9,293 bases of DNA from Bacteroidales bacterium (GTDB lineage Bacteria; Bacteroidota; Bacteroidia; Bacteroidales; F082), in contig JAEEII010000156.1 of the NCBI GenBank assembly GCA_016281295.1, positions 1 through 9,293 of the forward strand. Direction: 5' to 3'. Both the position numbers and the translations under genes were made by a program. Shown piece by piece: positions 262-9,293 of this stretch. The notes beneath the pieces were generated by a model that saw nothing but the letters and a program-made list of their open reading frames with translations, did no database searches and was not told the origin of the DNA. Each line of letters begins with the position of its first letter. Within the stretch, counting starts at the first letter, position 1.

Positions 262-1512
262 TCAGGGTCGTTTGATAACGGTTTGTGACGTGGTTCCATT
301 TGTGGTGTGGATTTGAAGTATATAGATTCCTGCGGGAAGGTTTCCAATATCAATTTGGTCGGTGTTGCCAGTAATTAACGTGCATCCGTGGAGGTCATTC
401 ATCTCGAAATGCTGCATTGTGGGGACGTCTACCTTGAGGATTGATGTCGTTGGGTTTGGGTAGACTTTCACTGGAATAATGGTGTGGATGCTATTGATGT
501 TGCTTGGGATTTGTCGGATTTCGACGTCCAATAGGGTTGTGTCGCTCATGCATCGATGATATGCAACAAGCCTCGCCTGGTAAATTCCACTGTCGGCATA
601 GGTGTGACTAAAATGTTGTTCTGTGGCGTCGAGGGAGAGCGTGGCGCCATCGCCAAAATCACAGGTTATACTATCGGTATTGTTGGATGTATTGGTAAAG
701 AATGCGGTATAATTGTCAATTTCGACAGAGAGTCTGGCTTGGGGTTGAGGGCGTTGCCAATGAGTGAGGTTTTCATATACTATCCTTTTTACAACAGTTC
801 GGATTATCCGTGCTGTTGTGTCGTCGAGAGAGGAGTTAAAGGTGATATTATTTGGGTCTCGATGAAAAAACATTACGTAGAATGCACATGCGGCGGCATA
901 TGTTCCGGCTATTGATGGATGGCTGCCGTCGGAGGCATATAATTCAATTCCGTGATGGTTGCTGCGGATGTATCTCCATACCCGTCCTACGGGGCACAAG
1001 CTTGATTCGTTGGCTTCTGCCATATAGGTATAGCGCTCGCACAACATGCTGTCCATGCCCTCATATGTGCCAAGCACCGGGAATTCGTTGGCGTTGCTTT
1101 CATCACCATTCTTGCGCCCCCAGGTCATGTAGAACATTGGCTCGGCACAAGGATTGTTTGCATATATGGAATCCACAAGTCGTTTCGCGTAAGGGAAGCA
1201 TTGCTGTTCTACTTGCCATTGTGGAAACGAAGGCAGTTGACTTTGTTCCTGTAGCACCACAATGTCCCAGATTCCCTCTCGGATCATCGACATGGATTGG
1301 TTGTTGCAATGCTGCATGAAAGTGCATCCACCGGGAGTGTTTGTGCTGTAGGTCATTTGGTCACCCATATTAGTGGCGATGTCTGATACCATTTGGGGAA
1401 GGTTGTTTACTTCGGTATAGCTGTTACCGATAAAGAGCACATTAGGAATGTATTGTGCTCGCAATTGTAGGTGGAGAAGCAACAATAGTATGAAAAAACC
1501 TTTTACTTTCAT
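262..1512 (-). CDS. Secreted SGNH-type hydrolase with PKD domain and type IX secretion sorting tail
   Basis: This 416-aa protein begins with a signal peptide (charged MKVKG, then a leucine-rich core to about residue 19, ending RAQ). The SGNH block I appears as FIGNSYT at 27-33, making Ser31 the likely nucleophile. The block V Asp-x-x-His is D195-G-S-H198, followed by PS. The Asn in GNS in place of GDS, and the layout, recall the DUF4886-like SGNH group of Bacteroidota. Residues about 260-333 form a PKD-like domain (CDFGDG at 284-289). From 347 to the end is a type A sorting domain with YPNP at 351-354 and a final GNLPAGIYILQI strand pattern. Inferred role: an exported esterase or deacylase carried out by the type IX system and held at or released from the cell surface; the substrate is unknown. 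It is the last gene of a three-gene operon, and its start overlaps the stop of the WbqC-like gene (ATGA, 1509-1512). Fold and export are well supported; the reaction is not proven. Confidence 0.88.
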   Translation of the reverse strand: MKVKGFFILLLLLHLQLRAQYIPNVLFIGNSYTEVNNLPQMVSDIATNMGDQMTYSTNTPGGCTFMQHCNNQSMSMIREGIWDIVVLQEQSQLPSFPQWQVEQQCFPYAKRLVDSIYANNPCAEPMFYMTWGRKNGDESNANEFPVLGTYEGMDSMLCERYTYMAEANESSLCPVGRVWRYIRSNHHGIELYASDGSHPSIAGTYAAACAFYVMFFHRDPNNITFNSSLDDTTARIIRTVVKRIVYENLTHWQRPQPQARLSVEIDNYTAFFTNTSNNTDSITCDFGDGATLSLDATEQHFSHTYADSGIYQARLVAYHRCMSDTTLLDVEIRQIPSNINSIHTIIPVKVYPNPTTSILKVDVPTMQHFEMNDLHGCTLITGNTDQIDIGNLPAGIYILQIHTTNGTTSQTVIKRP

Positions 1513-2829: not shown

Positions 2830-2902
2830 GACTCAGTAGCTCAGTAGGTAGAGCACAACACTTTTAATGTTGGGGTCCTGGGTTCGAGCCCCAGCTGGGT
2901 CA
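2830..2902 (+). tRNA. tRNA-Lys (anticodon TTT), copy 1
   Basis: This 73-base cloverleaf has acceptor arms GACTCAG (2830-2836) and CTGGGTC (2895-2901) with one T-G wobble, a D-stem GCTC/GAGC, an anticodon stem CAACA/TGTTG around loop CTTTTAA (anticodon TTT), a T-arm CTGGG-TTCGAGC-CCCAG, and discriminator A at 2902. The next bases are CAA, so CCA is not encoded and must be added after transcription. It differs from copy 2 at a single D-loop base (T2845 here, C in copy 2). Confidence 0.97.
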
Positions 2903-2903
2903 C

Positions 2904-2937
2904 AAAACCGATTACAGGCTTTGTCTGTAATTGTTTT
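2904..2937 (+). terminator. Hairpin between the two tRNA-Lys genes
   Basis: A 7-bp perfect stem (attacag 2911-2917 with ctgtaat 2925-2931, loop gctttgt) is extended outward by a G-T pair, a C-G pair, one mismatch and four A-T pairs (aaaa with tttt). It ends in TTGTTTT, so it could act as a weak intrinsic terminator between the copies. It could equally be a spacer hairpin that guides processing of the tandem transcript. No promoter is visible between the two tRNAs, so complete termination here would silence copy 2. Confidence 0.45.
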
Positions 2938-2938
2938 A

Positions 2939-3014
2939 GACTCAGTAGCTCAGCAGGTAGAGCACAACACTTTTAATGTTGGGGTCCTGGGTTCGAGCCC
3001 CAGCTGGGTCACCA
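2939..3014 (+). tRNA. tRNA-Lys (anticodon TTT), copy 2, with encoded CCA
   Basis: Bases 2939-3011 repeat the cloverleaf of copy 1 (anticodon TTT, same stems), with one D-loop change to C. The discriminator A3011 is followed by CCA at 3012-3014, so unlike copy 1 this gene encodes its own 3' end. The two copies should be co-transcribed from the promoter at 2762-2792. Confidence 0.96.
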
Positions 3015-6272: not shown

Positions 6273-7382
6273 CTAATCAAGCAAATACTCCGCCAAGTAG
6301 GGGACGGCAAACACCAACTCGCCTCGGCGGGGTGCCTCTATGACTCCGGCATCAAGCAAACGCTTGCGATAGGGCTGTATCGCCGGCCCCCTCCTCCCCA
6401 AAGCCGCCTGCAATTTGGCTGTGGTCACGGTGCCTCCTATTTGTGCCAAAGCTTTCAAAAAAATCTTGTCGTTATCCGACAGTGGCGACAATATCGGTTT
6501 GAAGACGTTATCCTCCATATCACCCATGGCTGCTTTCTCTGCTTTATCCATGATAGCGGCATCGACATTTCCTCCTTCCGGAGTATATTGTATTACATAA
6601 TAGCCAATCAATTGCATCAAATATGGGAAACCTCTGGTGGCAAGAGTTGCCCGATCCAGCATCTCATCCGGAATCTTGATACCGATTGACCTGAACGACC
6701 GCTCATAGTAAGCCCTGATCAGGTTGGTTGAAATCAGCCCCAACTCTACCTTGCAGGCACGATTCAGAAATGTCAGCACGCTGTCGTTCAAGACACTGGA
6801 AACAGCATGCGGCAGACCCGCCATCGCGATGGCCACGTTCTTTCCGTCGCCCACCAACTCCTGGTAGGCCGATGCCACCTCACGCATGGCAGCCGATGTA
6901 CGTACCTCGTCAATCAGAATCAGAGCACCCTTGCCCTTCTCCGCAAGTTTGTCGCAAAGTAGCGACATTTTCGACCGGAACCCGTACTGCCGCTCAGCTG
7001 CCTCGGAAAAAGTAAGACCCAACGAGAACCCTAGCACGCCTGCAGTCATTCCCGTCATCTTCCGTTTCTCTTCCTTGAAGTATTGCGAGCCATTCAATTG
7101 TAACTGCTCAATGATGGCTTTGGGCATTCCTTCATGAGCAGTCACACGTGCCACCACATACCCAGCCTTCGTCGCCCGGTCACTTAGTTCCAGCAACAGA
7201 GCCGTCTTGCCCATACCCCTTTGTCCAAGGAATAGTGTGCATCGGTTGCGGCTTCCTATCGGTTCCTGCAAGCCTTCCATAAACTGCTCTATCTCGCCGT
7301 CACGGCCAATATACTGGTCAGGACGGTTCCCGAACGTGGGCTGAAAAAAGGTATGTGGATTCATCTTGTCAGTCTTCTTCAT
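6273..7382 (-). CDS. AAA-type ATPase with C-terminal winged helix, function unknown
   Basis: This 369-aa cytoplasmic protein has FGNRPDQYIGR at 17-27, Walker A GQRGMGKT at 53-60, Walker B ALILIDE with D158-E159, and a sensor-1-like strand VAIAMAG at 183-189. From about 305 to 369 is a winged-helix-like end (KIFLKALAQIGG, then TAKLQAALGRRG and LLDAGVI). It resembles the archaeal-type/Orc1-like ATP-binding proteins scattered through Bacteroidota and Actinobacteria, whose cellular role is mostly unknown. A conserved family start would fit Met7 (MNP, 7362-7364) as well as Met1. It has its own promoter (7446-7476) and a leader built from tandem repeats. It is convergent with the rsmA operon and lies next to an Rhs remnant, which suggests accessory DNA. 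A DNA-linked or defence role is possible but not shown. Confidence 0.85.
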   Translation of the reverse strand: MKKTDKMNPHTFFQPTFGNRPDQYIGRDGEIEQFMEGLQEPIGSRNRCTLFLGQRGMGKTALLLELSDRATKAGYVVARVTAHEGMPKAIIEQLQLNGSQYFKEEKRKMTGMTAGVLGFSLGLTFSEAAERQYGFRSKMSLLCDKLAEKGKGALILIDEVRTSAAMREVASAYQELVGDGKNVAIAMAGLPHAVSSVLNDSVLTFLNRACKVELGLISTNLIRAYYERSFRSIGIKIPDEMLDRATLATRGFPYLMQLIGYYVIQYTPEGGNVDAAIMDKAEKAAMGDMEDNVFKPILSPLSDNDKIFLKALAQIGGTVTTAKLQAALGRRGPAIQPYRKRLLDAGVIEAPRRGELVFAVPYLAEYLLD

Positions 7383-7390
7383 CGCCCCTT

Positions 7391-7439
7391 TATTTTCTTT
7401 TATTCTTCTTTATTTTCTTTTATTCTTCTTTATTCTTTC
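7391..7439. repeat. Tandem 20-bp repeats forming the leader of the ATPase gene
   Basis: The unit tattttcttttattcttctt occurs perfectly at 7391-7410 and 7411-7430, with a partial third copy (tattctttc) at 7431-7439. On the minus strand this is a purine-rich, C-free sequence between the predicted transcription start near 7440 and the start codon at 7382, so nearly the entire leader is repeat. Copy number could change by slippage or recombination. Confidence 0.92.
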
Positions 7440-7445
7440 AGAATG

Positions 7446-7476
7446 CAAAGATACGAATGTTTTTTGGAATGGCAAA
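7446..7476 (-). promoter_or_regulatory. Bacteroidota-type promoter of the ATPase gene
   Basis: On the minus strand TTTG (7476-7473) is followed after 19 bp by TATCTTTG (7453-7446), an exact TTTG-N19-TAnnTTTG match. Transcription should begin near 7440, giving a leader of about 55 bases. The promoter lies inside the last codons of the neighbouring Rhs remnant, which argues that the end of that frame is not selected as protein. Confidence 0.85.
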
Positions 7477-7548
7477 AATATTTTTTAGGGGTTGGAAAGG
7501 GGGGTAGCAGGGGGCCAGCGGGTCGACACTCAACCACATGGTCATCAA

Positions 7549-7686
7549 CTCGTGGTCCATGTACCTCGCACCGAAGTAGCCATACCCCGTTTCCTCATCC
7601 TTCTCTTTGCCGGTGAAAGCAATGGGGTAAAACCGCATGGTTTTTGTGCGGTTTACCCATTCGGTTTTATGTGCAAGTTGGTTCAA
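7549..7686 (-). repeat. Rhs-core direct repeat, copy A
   Basis: This 138-bp segment is colinear with copy B at 9098-9235. The half encoding the core (7549-7619) matches it at 65 of 71 bases by my count, including 38 identical bases in a row; the outer end (7664-7686) is also near-identical, and the middle is more diverged. Copies A and B are in the same orientation with starts 1549 bp apart. Confidence 0.85.
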
Positions 7687-7809
7687 TCAATCATTCTTTT
7701 CCGTTGTAACAGATACTAGTCTCCAATCGCATTTCCCAGTCCCATTTAATGGCCAATATTGGTGTATTGGTCCAGAACTCTCATTTCATCCTTCAAAACG
7801 GTCACAATC
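7687..7809 (-). other. Spacer between the lipoprotein gene and the Rhs remnant
   Basis: These 123 bases separate the lipoprotein stop from the Rhs remnant. On the minus strand only very short frames occur, for example about 19 codons starting at a GTG soon after the lipoprotein stop, and 10 codons ending at a TGA that overlaps the TTG of the remnant. A 10-bp perfect palindrome (ccaatattgg, 7753-7762) is present, but no terminator-like hairpin with a T-run. Confidence 0.5.
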
Positions 7810-8394
7810 TTATGGTTCAGGTAACGATTGAATAATAGAATCCAATCGTTTTATTTGATTTTCTTGAATGAACTCATAAATGTTTTTTTCGTTGTTTGGT
7901 TCACCCAACTTACTTAACACGAAAACCGCTACGTGAACGGGTTTTGTTGCCGTAATACCACAAAAATCATTCATGGGTCTACTCCCCCGGCAGAACCATT
8001 TACCGTGCATTGCCCAAGTACATCCATGAACAATAAAAATACTTGACCTGTCAGCTGCCCAATCTATCATTACATTAACCGAATCCACATTCGACCCAAT
8101 ATAGTATTTAGGAATCGTAAAAGAAATAGAATCGTCACCACTTACGACACGGAAATAATATGTCTCGTCACGAAAAGAGTGGCTTAAAAAACAAACTTTT
8201 TTTCTGTACGGATTCGCTTCCCCCATATAATATAGTAAAGGAGGATCGATATAACTGGTTTCCGACCAAATAACATTAATTGGTATAGATAATGAAGTGA
8301 AACTGGATTTTGTATTTGTAGTACTGCAAATACAAGATTCTAAAAACACAAACGCAGTAAGCAATAGCGGTATTATATAAAAAAACTTTCTCAT
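7810..8394 (-). CDS. Putative immunity lipoprotein of the Rhs cassette
   Basis: I do not recognise the family of this 194-aa protein. It starts with a lipoprotein signal: MRK, a hydrophobic core, and lipobox L18-E-S-C21, so Cys21 should be lipidated. The bases after the cysteine (ICSTTNTKSS) contain no acidic residues, so it lacks the acidic signal that sends many Bacteroidota lipoproteins to the outer surface; it would then face the periplasm. The mature part looks strand-rich with several further cysteines (68, 125, 135, 145). Its start is 13 bp downstream of the stop of the Rhs C-terminal gene, the position normal for the immunity gene of an Rhs or CDI toxin. An immunity role is inferred from position only. 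If true, the partner acts in the periplasm. Its DNA is clearly A+T-richer than the rsmA operon, as expected for transferred cassettes. Confidence 0.65.
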   Translation of the reverse strand: MRKFFYIIPLLLTAFVFLESCICSTTNTKSSFTSLSIPINVIWSETSYIDPPLLYYMGEANPYRKKVCFLSHSFRDETYYFRVVSGDDSISFTIPKYYIGSNVDSVNVMIDWAADRSSIFIVHGCTWAMHGKWFCRGSRPMNDFCGITATKPVHVAVFVLSKLGEPNNEKNIYEFIQENQIKRLDSIIQSLPEP

Positions 8395-8407
8395 CTGACA
8401 CTAGCAT

Positions 8408-9235
8408 TTATTTCCATTCTGGATACCCTATATTTTTTCTAAAACAATTATCAGGGAACACTGGCAATTTAGGATACAGGGGGGATTGGGGGTAATTTTT
8501 ATCCATGAAGCCGTATTTAAATTCCCATGCTAAAAGATGTGCCTCCATATTATAGATATATCCCATTACAGTCAAACATCTATGCGTGGGGCTAAAGAGT
8601 TTTGTTCCTGGAGCTAAGGCGGAAAATTTCCATGCCAGTGCCTCTGAGTAACATGATGGAACATTGCGATGATCATTTTGCATATATTTCCACGCATGGT
8701 AGGTTTCCTCAAATAGATATTTAAACTCACTCATGCCCAAAATTTCACTCTGAGTACTTCTAGTTTCTCCACTGGTAAATTTAATTATGGCAGTCTTATT
8801 ATTATCCTGAGGGCTAAAATCCCCATCGCTAGATTCACTCCCATTCCAAATTTCAAAAATATAGGTATAACTATCTTTCTTAAGATCCTGAAAAACATCA
8901 GAGAATTCTTTCGAGTAATTATCATTCTCTGAATCTAACAGTTGCAGAATGTAGTTCTCTGCCGCTTTGCTCGCATATTTACATGTGTCCCCCGTTGGAT
9001 CGATTAATTTTATCGGGTTCCAAGCACAATAGGCATACGGAGAAATAGATGGATATTTACTTGCGTATCTGTCAATCGAGAGAAATGAAGTTAAAAGCTC
9101 GTGGTCCATATAGCGGGCGCCGAAGTAGCCATACCCCGTTTCCTCATCCTTCTCTTTCCCGGTGAAAGATAACGATGAAAAAAGCCATGATGAGGTATGG
9201 TTTTTCTGTGCAGTTTTATGTGCCGGATGGTTCAA
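8408..9235 (-). CDS. Orphan Rhs tip: short Rhs core plus unrecognised putative toxin domain
   Basis: This 275-codon frame has three parts. Residues 1-23 are a poorly conserved lead (NHPAHKT...). Residues 24-82 are an Rhs-associated core (FTGKEKDEETGYGYFGARY, then KYPSISPYAYCAWNP and the boundary D79-P-T-G82). Residues 83-275 are a variable C-terminal domain that I do not recognise. In other Rhs proteins the polymorphic toxin follows exactly this boundary. The C-terminal domain contains F-E-E-T-Y-H180-A-W and, 18 residues on, S-E198-A-L-A-W, a layout like a zinc peptidase HExxH...E with the first His replaced by Glu176. There is no ATG before residue 43; the only possible start is TTG at 9233-9235, and an in-frame stop lies at 9269-9271. 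It therefore looks like a displaced tip cassette and not a full Rhs protein. The lipoprotein gene follows 13 bp later. Confidence 0.72.
   Translation of the reverse strand: MNHPAHKTAQKNHTSSWLFSSLSFTGKEKDEETGYGYFGARYMDHELLTSFLSIDRYASKYPSISPYAYCAWNPIKLIDPTGDTCKYASKAAENYILQLLDSENDNYSKEFSDVFQDLKKDSYTYIFEIWNGSESSDGDFSPQDNNKTAIIKFTSGETRSTQSEILGMSEFKYLFEETYHAWKYMQNDHRNVPSCYSEALAWKFSALAPGTKLFSPTHRCLTVMGYIYNMEAHLLAWEFKYGFMDKNYPQSPLYPKLPVFPDNCFRKNIGYPEWK
9098..9235 (-). repeat. Rhs-core direct repeat, copy B
   Basis: This is the start of the Rhs tip cassette and matches copy A (7549-7686) over 138 bp in the same orientation; 9098-9168 matches at 65 of 71 bases by my count. DNA similarity to copy A ends at the inner edge, near 9098, where the encoded cores diverge (LLTSFLSIDR here, LMTMWLSVDP in copy A). 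Confidence 0.85.
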
Positions 9236-9293
9236 CTGGCATTGGAGTTGTGCATGTCCAGACCTGTTTTATATATGGCGCTATGTGTCAAAC
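9232..9293 (-). other. Possible 3' end of an upstream gene running out of the window
   Basis: On the minus strand a frame is open from the window edge to a TGA at 9234-9232, giving 20 codons including the stop (ending DMHNSNAS). The TGA overlaps the TTG that would start the Rhs tip (TTGA), an arrangement that would allow coupled translation. An open frame this short is not significant on its own; it may be the tail of another immunity gene or simply chance. Confidence 0.25.

What the first reader, a model, noticed from the sequence alone, without database searches (positions are those of the whole stretch)
7549..9235. Toxin-immunity cassette bracketed by direct repeats of Rhs-core DNA
The sequence shows two colinear, same-orientation copies of about 138 bp (65 of 71 identical in the core half, 38 in a row) with starts 1549 bp apart. 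Between them lie a variable Rhs C-terminal domain and a lipoprotein gene. From Rhs/CDI biology, core homology upstream of each tip is what lets tips be swapped or lost. Here one recombination between repeats would remove exactly one toxin-immunity pair, and recombination with a full-length rhs elsewhere would install it. The array may continue beyond 9293.
Basis: partly seen in the sequence, partly recalled or inferred. Interest (0 to 1): 0.7.

Follow-up and report, generated by a model that had tools for sequence, protein, structure and literature searches.

The report
Swappable Rhs toxin-immunity cassette array
In a rumen bacterium, a toxin tip and its likely immunity gene sit between repeated pieces of a toxin-delivery gene, and related genomes show that such units are exchanged whole at those repeats; this process was already known in other bacteria, but here many units also carry a conserved hairpin that I did not find described.

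Summary
The repeat is real: 105 of 138 bases match, 38 in a row; 100 shuffles reach 16. It brackets one orphan Rhs tip and one lipoprotein gene. Half is Rhs core coding DNA; the other half is a conserved covarying hairpin without coding constraint, found at the 3' end of units. RUG11699 matches the window at 99.6%: tip and lipoprotein are identical, but sequence diverges at the core end, where RUG11699 has true rhs core. Core occurs in 121 of 190 family genomes; adjacent cores lie about 1.55 kb apart, 91 of 100 intervals holding one gene. In 20 cross-genome pairs sharing a unit, the left border lies in or within 18 bp of the core; in 5 of 9 testable pairs the right border lies in or within 2 bp of the next core; one pair links a full-length rhs tip to an orphan. 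So this is a C-terminal-displacement array, a known kind, turning over by recombination in the core. New: the hairpin, mostly exported partner genes, an ATPase gene moving as a unit. Not shown: toxicity, immunity, the hairpin's role, a full-length rhs in this species.

The parts
9167..9235 (-). Cassette-boundary element, copy 1 (leader 5' of the tip's core); weak stem
   Evidence: Model R1 49.8 bits; stretch 9161-9232 folds with z -1.19, 26 of 200 shuffles fold as well; a 75-nt stretch covering it is identical in the array of G005, L104 9629-9703
8990..9166 (-). Rhs-associated core fragment, 59 codons, upstream of the tip
   Evidence: TIGR03696 50 bits; core HMM 1-59
8408..8989 (-). Variable C-terminal tip (putative toxin); the whole listed ORF is 8408-9235, start TTG
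   Evidence: 43-sequence alignment with invariant E176, E177, H180, E198; confident model for residues ~82-270
7810..8394 (-). Lipoprotein gene, putative immunity protein (194 aa)
   Evidence: S20-C21 invariant in 10 of 10 aligned sequences; 9 homologues found; identical in RUG11699
7618..7686 (-). Cassette-boundary hairpin element, copy 2 (3' of the lipoprotein gene); stem about 7622-7661
   Evidence: R1 86.4 bits; stretch 7612-7683 folds at -17.3 kcal/mol, z -2.97, 0 of 200 shuffles as well; covariation over 29 leaders
7486..7617 (-). Rhs core stub (core HMM 1-44) without a tip
   Evidence: 7 substitutions in 29 bp (7542-7570) against RUG11699 while 7571-9108 is identical
6273..7382 (-). AAA-type ATPase gene; with the stub it forms a core-bounded unit (7617 down to about 6255)
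   Evidence: Unit shared with G011:C10 at 92.9% over 1305 bp; among L001-L067 an ATPase homologue was found only in L001
5638..6222 (+). MntP-like gene (name recalled): conserved chromosomal flank of the array
   Evidence: Found in 60 of 67 relative loci

Best explanation
7486-9235 is one unit, plus the stub that closes it, of an orphan Rhs toxin-immunity array inserted downstream of an mntP-like gene in a rumen Bacteroidales genome. A unit is: Rhs core fragment, variable tip (putative toxin), one exported putative immunity gene, hairpin element, then the next core. The orphan has only the last ~60 codons of the core and no delivery part, so it is probably not delivered by itself; it acts as a stored alternative tip. 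Homologous recombination between the ~180-bp core copies adds, removes or replaces one whole toxin-immunity unit, and can place it on a full-length rhs gene or shunt it back. Shown by sequence: the anatomy, arrays in the family, exchange borders at cores, the full-length/orphan pair in other genomes, and constraint on the partner genes (on tips only in the more diverged pairs). Inferred: toxicity, immunity, RecA-type recombination as the mechanism, lack of delivery as an orphan, and the role of the hairpin (I favour an insulating or RNA-processing element after each toxin-immunity operon; confidence about 0.4).
For: Repeat and anatomy. Window vs RUG11699: 40 mismatches in 9168 bp, none in 7571-9108 (tip plus lipoprotein), 7 in 29 bp of the stub core and 5 in 9109-9158 of the upper core, then divergence at the core end, where RUG11699 continues as true rhs core. 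TIGR03696 in 121 of 190 family genomes; 100 adjacent core pairs with median spacing 1551 bp and one gene between in 91. Sharp repeat block: identity 0.28 outside, 0.5-0.8 from about -80 to +177, about 0.3 after. Borders at cores and the full-length/orphan pair; two adjacent units of G039 match two different genomes, G002 and G088. 135 of 153 tips are followed by an exported-type gene, control ORFs 90 of 254. 169 of 184 complete-core orphans keep a tip of at least 150 aa. In the 8 more diverged of 14 compared pairs nonsynonymous:synonymous differences are 334:236 (tips) and 186:177 (partners), below the ~3:1 expected without constraint.
Against: No full-length rhs was found in RUG11699. The window's own tip was not seen on a full-length gene. 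The RUG11699 junction is near a contig end and could be an assembly chimera. Right borders fall outside a recognised next core in 4 of 9 testable pairs. Among G001-G013 core identity within genomes (0.734) equals that between (0.726), so there is no genome-specific homogenisation among close relatives. In the 6 closest of 14 pairs the tips show 45 nonsynonymous to 12 synonymous differences, no sign of constraint (two pairs have only nonsynonymous ones, 9 and 6), while their partners show 11:8.
Confidence: 0.85

Rival explanations
1. The array is mainly a bank of immunity genes (acquired defence): the tips are along for the ride and the exported lipoproteins protect against neighbours' toxins.
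For: The gene after the tip is of exported type in 135 of 153 cases; partner genes are constrained (w 0.12-0.27 in the 10 of 14 pairs with a computable non-zero ratio), whereas tips in the 6 closest pairs show no constraint (45:12). Passages in PMC3150448 and PMC8125069 propose this role for other arrays.
Against: Tips are kept as open frames: 169 of 184 orphans have at least 150 aa after the core, and the 8 more diverged pairs show constraint on tips (334:236); 91 of 100 intervals hold exactly one gene with its tip rather than strings of immunity genes.
Confidence: 0.25
2. The orphans are decaying relics of earlier displacement with no present role.
For: The window holds a tipless core stub; 11 of 184 complete-core orphans have tips under 100 aa; some cores are interrupted by short insertions; no constraint on tips in the 6 closest pairs.
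Against: Most tips are open and the partner genes constrained; units moved recently between species (e.g. six pairs at 95-98% identity with tip dS of 0.031 or less).
Confidence: 0.1
3. The difference between the window and RUG11699 at the core is an assembly chimera at a repeat, so the local swap is not real.
For: The RUG11699 contig ends within 85 bp of the core and MAG assemblies often break at repeats (recalled).
Against: Protein clusters appear to carry both states in several assemblies: P0001 (rhs-core head, 18 contigs, longest 407,832 bp) and P0002 (annotated from MDHELL, 13 contigs, longest 88,802 bp) (reading P0002 as the orphan-leader state is inference). The cross-genome pairs do not depend on this junction.
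Confidence: 0.2
4. The hairpin is a dedicated recombination site and the units are integron-like cassettes moved by a recombinase.
For: Of 111 non-duplicate hairpin hits (40 bits or more), 82 have a tip unit 5' on the same strand (one, in L272, is an overlap rather than a true unit) and 99 have a tip unit 5' or a core 3'; the structure is conserved with changes on both sides.
Against: Left borders of shared units are spread over ~160 bp at the core, not at one hairpin nucleotide. No recombinase was looked for.
Confidence: 0.1

Closest known systems
Rhs C-terminal displacement arrays of Enterobacteriaceae (PMC2935791; PMC3967940)
   Same: Orphan tips, each with a piece of core, downstream of full-length rhs; core-core recombination, with a circle model, to swap or shunt tips (passages)
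   Different: Here units are ~1.55 kb with a single, mostly exported partner gene, many with a conserved hairpin at the unit's 3' end, only ~60 core codons, and several arrays with no full-length gene in the stretch examined
Orphan cdiA-CT/cdiI modules (PMC3150448)
   Same: A shared module runs precisely from one VENN motif to the next (passages), as here from core to core
   Different: Different delivery protein; motif VENN rather than the Rhs core/DPxG
Long orphan Rhs arrays of bee gut bacteria (PMC8125069)
   Same: Gut symbionts with arrays of orphan tips plus immunity genes, proposed as a reservoir or as defence (passages)
   Different: T6SS-linked there; the two full-length genes examined here carry SpvB, FG-GAP, TcdB-middle and RHS repeats and no PAAR hit
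Neisseria mafB silent cassettes
   Same: Full-length gene followed by displaced C-terminal fragments flanked by conserved domains (described in PMC2935791, passage)
   Different: Not shown to be homologous (same passage)

Membership tests
Orphan Rhs toxin-immunity cassette (C-terminal displacement array) | Core fragment ending at a DPxG motif directly before the variable tip | tested here: met
   TIGR03696 50 bits; D79, P80, G82 invariant in 43 sequences
Orphan Rhs toxin-immunity cassette (C-terminal displacement array) | Tip hypervariable while the core is shared | tested here: met
   Tip in 3 of 190 genomes, one closely; core in 121 of 190; identity falls to ~0.3 after the core
Orphan Rhs toxin-immunity cassette (C-terminal displacement array) | Small partner gene directly after the tip | tested here: met
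   Lipoprotein gene at 7810-8394; one gene in 91 of 100 intervals
Orphan Rhs toxin-immunity cassette (C-terminal displacement array) | Lacks the delivery N-terminus of full-length rhs | tested here: met
   34 open codons before the core
Orphan Rhs toxin-immunity cassette (C-terminal displacement array) | Tips occur on full-length genes elsewhere | tested here: inconclusive
   Met for another unit of the family (G008 full-length vs G098 orphan); not seen for the window's tip
Orphan Rhs toxin-immunity cassette (C-terminal displacement array) | Full-length rhs in the same genome | tested here: inconclusive
   None among 4 core hits of RUG11699; it is a MAG and may be incomplete; the window's own genome is not held
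Orphan Rhs toxin-immunity cassette (C-terminal displacement array) | Toxicity of the tip and protection by the partner | not testable with these tools
Zinc metallopeptidase toxins (Tox-MPTase type) | HExxH motif (as listed in PMC3482391, passage) | tested here: not met
   The invariant residues are EExxH plus a later Glu
Zinc metallopeptidase toxins (Tox-MPTase type) | Gluzincin-like fold | tested here: inconclusive
Bacterial lipoprotein (partner gene) | Signal sequence with invariant lipobox Cys | tested here: met
   S20-C21 invariant in 10 of 10
Intrinsic terminator (hairpin element) | GC stem directly followed by a T-run | tested here: not met
   The consensus scan of 7300-9293 lists no terminator at either element; one tool, simple rule, so the element could still end transcripts
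Integron gene cassette | Exchange at one nucleotide of the hairpin site | tested here: not met
   Left borders from -18 to +144 of the core start in 20 pairs
Integron gene cassette | Integrase gene | not tested
   No search made

The most novel reading that the evidence does not exclude
The ~70-nt element that follows the immunity gene in these units is a dedicated, structure-conserved cassette-boundary element of Rhs arrays (43 of 190 family genomes). It either promotes or guides exchange, or keeps each stored toxin silent, which would make these arrays a purpose-built toxin library rather than a passive heap of displaced tips.
Probability: 0.25. Interest if true: 0.75.

Novelty: new variant of a known kind. 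Interest (0 to 1): 0.5.

Why it matters
It shows in uncultured rumen Bacteroidales, with sequence borders, that toxin-immunity pairs move as whole units between species and between orphan and full-length positions, so neighbours could change weapon and matching shield in one step. The hairpin gives a sequence tag with which such arrays can be found and counted in metagenomes, and a testable question: does it silence, insulate or recombine? The mostly exported partner proteins suggest that these tips act in the cell envelope.

Tried and rejected
Peptide leader: I first read the leader 5' of orphan cores as a short conserved N-terminal peptide starting at TTG/ATG. Rejected: codon positions are about equally conserved in the leader (0.62/0.58/0.62) but not in the core (0.81/0.85/0.52); four other lineages also lack the third-position drop in their leaders.

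Leader as part of the next unit: rejected as the whole story, because 46 of 111 hairpin hits have no intact core 3' while 82 of 111 have a tip unit 5'.

Terminator: the simple scan does not call it one. Rfam: no match to the element in the window. RNAalifold alone predicted no consensus structure on the first 23 sequences; the named structure was then tested by pair counts.

Toxin function: no Pfam family for the window's tip at E 1; among 43 members PF03527 RHS in 3 and otherwise only single-member weak hits; fold matches weak. The lipoprotein model is poor (pLDDT 61) and was not searched. The gene after G096's weak tip relative is not a detectable homologue of the lipoprotein, so linkage of this tip to this lipoprotein is shown only in the window and RUG11699.

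Literature: eight searches listed no paper whose title or abstract start describes a hairpin at Rhs cassette ends or Rhs arrays in rumen Bacteroidales; the library lacks most subscription journals. Papers seen only as passages: PMC3967940, PMC3482391, PMC8125069, PMC3150448, PMC2935791; all others only as search listings.

Full report
Observation. The two copies exist as described: 138 nt, 7549-7686 and 9098-9235, spacing 1549; 105 of 138 bases identical, 63 of 69 in the core half and 42 of 69 in the other half; 38 bases in a row, while the longest direct repeat in 100 Markov shuffles was 16. On the minus strand the upstream copy opens an ORF of 275 codons whose first part is the Rhs-associated core (TIGR03696, 50 bits, cut-off 32.5); the downstream copy is a core stub at 29.8 bits, under the cut-off. 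Between them lie the variable tip and a 194-aa lipoprotein gene; the lipoprotein's Ser-Cys is invariant in 10 aligned sequences.

Where it is. The window's own genome is not held. A scan with the neighbouring TPR protein found RUG11699 (L001), an uncultured Bacteroidetes MAG with a 100% identical TPR protein, whose contig ends inside the feature, and 66 further loci, many titled as rumen MAGs. Many relatives keep the order TPR, rsmA, mntP-like. In L003, L009, L010, L011 and L012 the mntP-like gene is followed directly by a gene starting MKLELLSPAKNL (I recall this as a U32-type peptidase); in RUG11699 the ATPase gene and the Rhs unit, and in L005 other Rhs units, sit there instead. Core hits beyond mntP occur in 4 of the 60 loci with mntP (L001, L005, L012, L042), 3 of them among the 54 loci with at least 2.5 kb held beyond it; in the other 51 of those 54 none was found in the stretch held. 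In L012 the cores lie some 4 kb further on. So the site is occupied in a few relatives, holds other tips in L005, and shows no Rhs unit in most.

Local evidence of recombination. Window and RUG11699 differ at 40 of 9168 positions. From 7571 to 9108, which includes tip and lipoprotein, they are identical, but seven substitutions fall in 29 bp of the stub core (7542-7570) and five in the upper core (9109-9158), and from about 9169, the end of the core, they no longer align: the window has the orphan leader, RUG11699 has true rhs core sequence (QYLPFETPFANQ...). Two protein clusters in several assemblies fit these two states (P0001, P0002; inference for P0002). A chimera cannot be excluded at this one junction because the RUG11699 contig ends 85 bp on.

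Family-wide picture. Of 190 genomes in the family of RUG11699, 121 have the core family, up to 28 copies in one genome. I then chose stretches from the hits listed (the second list is cut by the tool), so the following numbers describe array-rich stretches, not a census. In 81 stretches, RUG11699's copy of this locus and the window both included, I mapped 188 cores: 14 on open frames with more than 600 codons upstream, 150 with at most 150, 24 between. Among 100 adjacent same-strand core pairs (600-3500 bp apart) the median spacing is 1551 bp and 91 have exactly one gene between tip and next core, 7 two, 2 none. After 153 complete tips the next gene looks exported in 135 (49 lipoprotein-like, 86 signal or membrane segment), not in 9, and no gene was found in 9; control ORFs of 150-320 aa outside arrays, spurious ones included, score 90 of 254 (my own simple classifier). 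The window's tip is nearly private: 3 of 190 genomes match, one closely.

Exchange of whole units. Comparing all cassettes of 134 stretches (286 cores, 62 genomes) gave 20 cross-genome pairs sharing at least 500 bp at 80% or more; one locus pair, the window stub with L112, is counted twice because the L112 core is split. The left border of the shared DNA lies between -18 and +144 of the core start in all 20. In 9 pairs both genomes have a recognised next core; the right border lies inside it or within 2 bp of its end in 5, elsewhere in 4. Examples: G002 L102 and G011 L111 share 93.7% from core +73 to next core +176, with an orphan leader upstream in one and rhs core in the other; G061/G086 share from core +0 to the end of the next core; two adjacent units of G039 match two different genomes (G002 and G088); the rhs frame of at least 3004 aa in G008 shares its tip unit with an orphan of G098 at 95.7% over 1638 bp. 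The window's stub plus ATPase gene is itself such a unit, shared with G011 at 92.9%. The spread of borders through the core speaks for homologous recombination. Core identity is higher within than between genomes overall (0.787 vs 0.545, permuted maximum difference 0.028) but not among G001-G013 (0.734 vs 0.726).

Are the units functional? Of 184 complete-core orphans, 169 keep at least 150 aa of tip and 11 have under 100. I compared 14 of the 20 pairs (dropped: the two window/L112 rows, three partial matches and one pair repeating another unit). Summed nonsynonymous:synonymous differences are 379:248 for tips and 197:185 for partner genes, against roughly 3:1 without constraint. This hides a split: in the 8 more diverged pairs tips show 334:236 and partners 186:177, but in the 6 closest pairs tips show 45:12, no sign of constraint, and partners 11:8. 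Single tip ratios range from w 0.14 to 1.24, and two pairs have only nonsynonymous tip differences (9 and 6). So partner genes are constrained throughout, tips only over longer times; relaxed or diversifying change of tips after a move is possible.

The hairpin element. Aligned at the core, 24 orphan cassettes of G001-G013 and G071 show a sharply bounded repeat: background identity 0.28 up to about -95, 0.5-0.6 in the leader, 0.6-0.8 in the core, about 0.3 after +190 (this set was chosen for a start-like codon at -69). Without that choice, 23 of 38 orphan-like cores of G001-G013 plus the window have this leader by likeness to its consensus; its codon positions are about equally conserved (0.62/0.58/0.62) while the core shows the coding pattern (0.81/0.85/0.52). 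So the leader is conserved as nucleic acid. A 15-pair stem tested on 29 leaders pairs in 72.8% of cells against at most 44.0% when slid, with covariation score 0.210 against 0.136 in shuffles (0 of 500) and 30 cells changed on both sides against 13.7 (0 of 500); pairs with a change on both sides, 10 against 6.9, are matched by 19 of 500 shuffles. Around the element at 7618-7686 the window folds at -17.3 kcal/mol (0 of 200 shuffles as well); around 9167-9235 it folds weakly (26 of 200). A model finds the element in 43 of 190 genomes at E 0.01, E-values being rough. Of 111 non-duplicate hits of at least 40 bits, 82 have a tip unit 5' (one, in L272, is an overlap), 65 a core 3', 12 neither (6 of those near a stretch start). 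It therefore marks the 3' end of units, also where no intact core follows. It has no Rfam match and was not called a terminator. Other lineages have other leaders, likewise without a third-position drop. Its role is open.

The tip. The last part of the core matches the C-terminal core region of solved Rhs and Rhs-like proteins (best E 1.9e-9). The tip has no Pfam match. Its model is confident for residues ~82-270 but fold matches are weak and mixed, with several zinc metallopeptidases among them; invariant residues are EExxH and a later Glu, not HExxH. I regard a metallopeptidase-like fold as a lead only. Two full-length genes of relatives carry SpvB, FG-GAP, TcdB-middle and RHS repeats.

Verdict.

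Noticed in passing
L102, L108, L194, L195, L239, L241, L242, L252, L256, L265, L266, L269, L273: A short element with its own CCCC/GGGG-type hairpin interrupts Rhs cores near the same site (FTGK / ERDEETG): 14 copies in 11 genomes; some keep the frame. A second motif near the same site has 5 copies in 4 genomes.
   Followed up: partly
P0001, P0030: Rhs core heads fused to the first ~45 residues of what I recall as an ElaA-type acetyltransferase, with two different tips.
   Followed up: no
window 6273-7382: The ATPase gene travels with a core stub as if it were a toxin unit; among L001-L067 a homologue was found only in RUG11699.
   Followed up: partly
L104/L105, L106, L111, L112: Some arrays have two divergent arms, one headed by true rhs core and one by a second type of leader (e.g. 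KKATAQLS..YTQSISENF).
   Followed up: no
six closest cross-genome pairs, e.g. L116/L112, L244/L239, L270/L105: Recently shared tips differ mostly by nonsynonymous changes (45:12) while their partner genes do not (11:8).
   Followed up: partly
window 2830-3014: Two tandem tRNA-Lys(TTT) genes, 97% identical over 77 nt.
   Followed up: no
window 262-1512: Protein with DUF4886, PKD and T9SS sorting tail.
   Followed up: no
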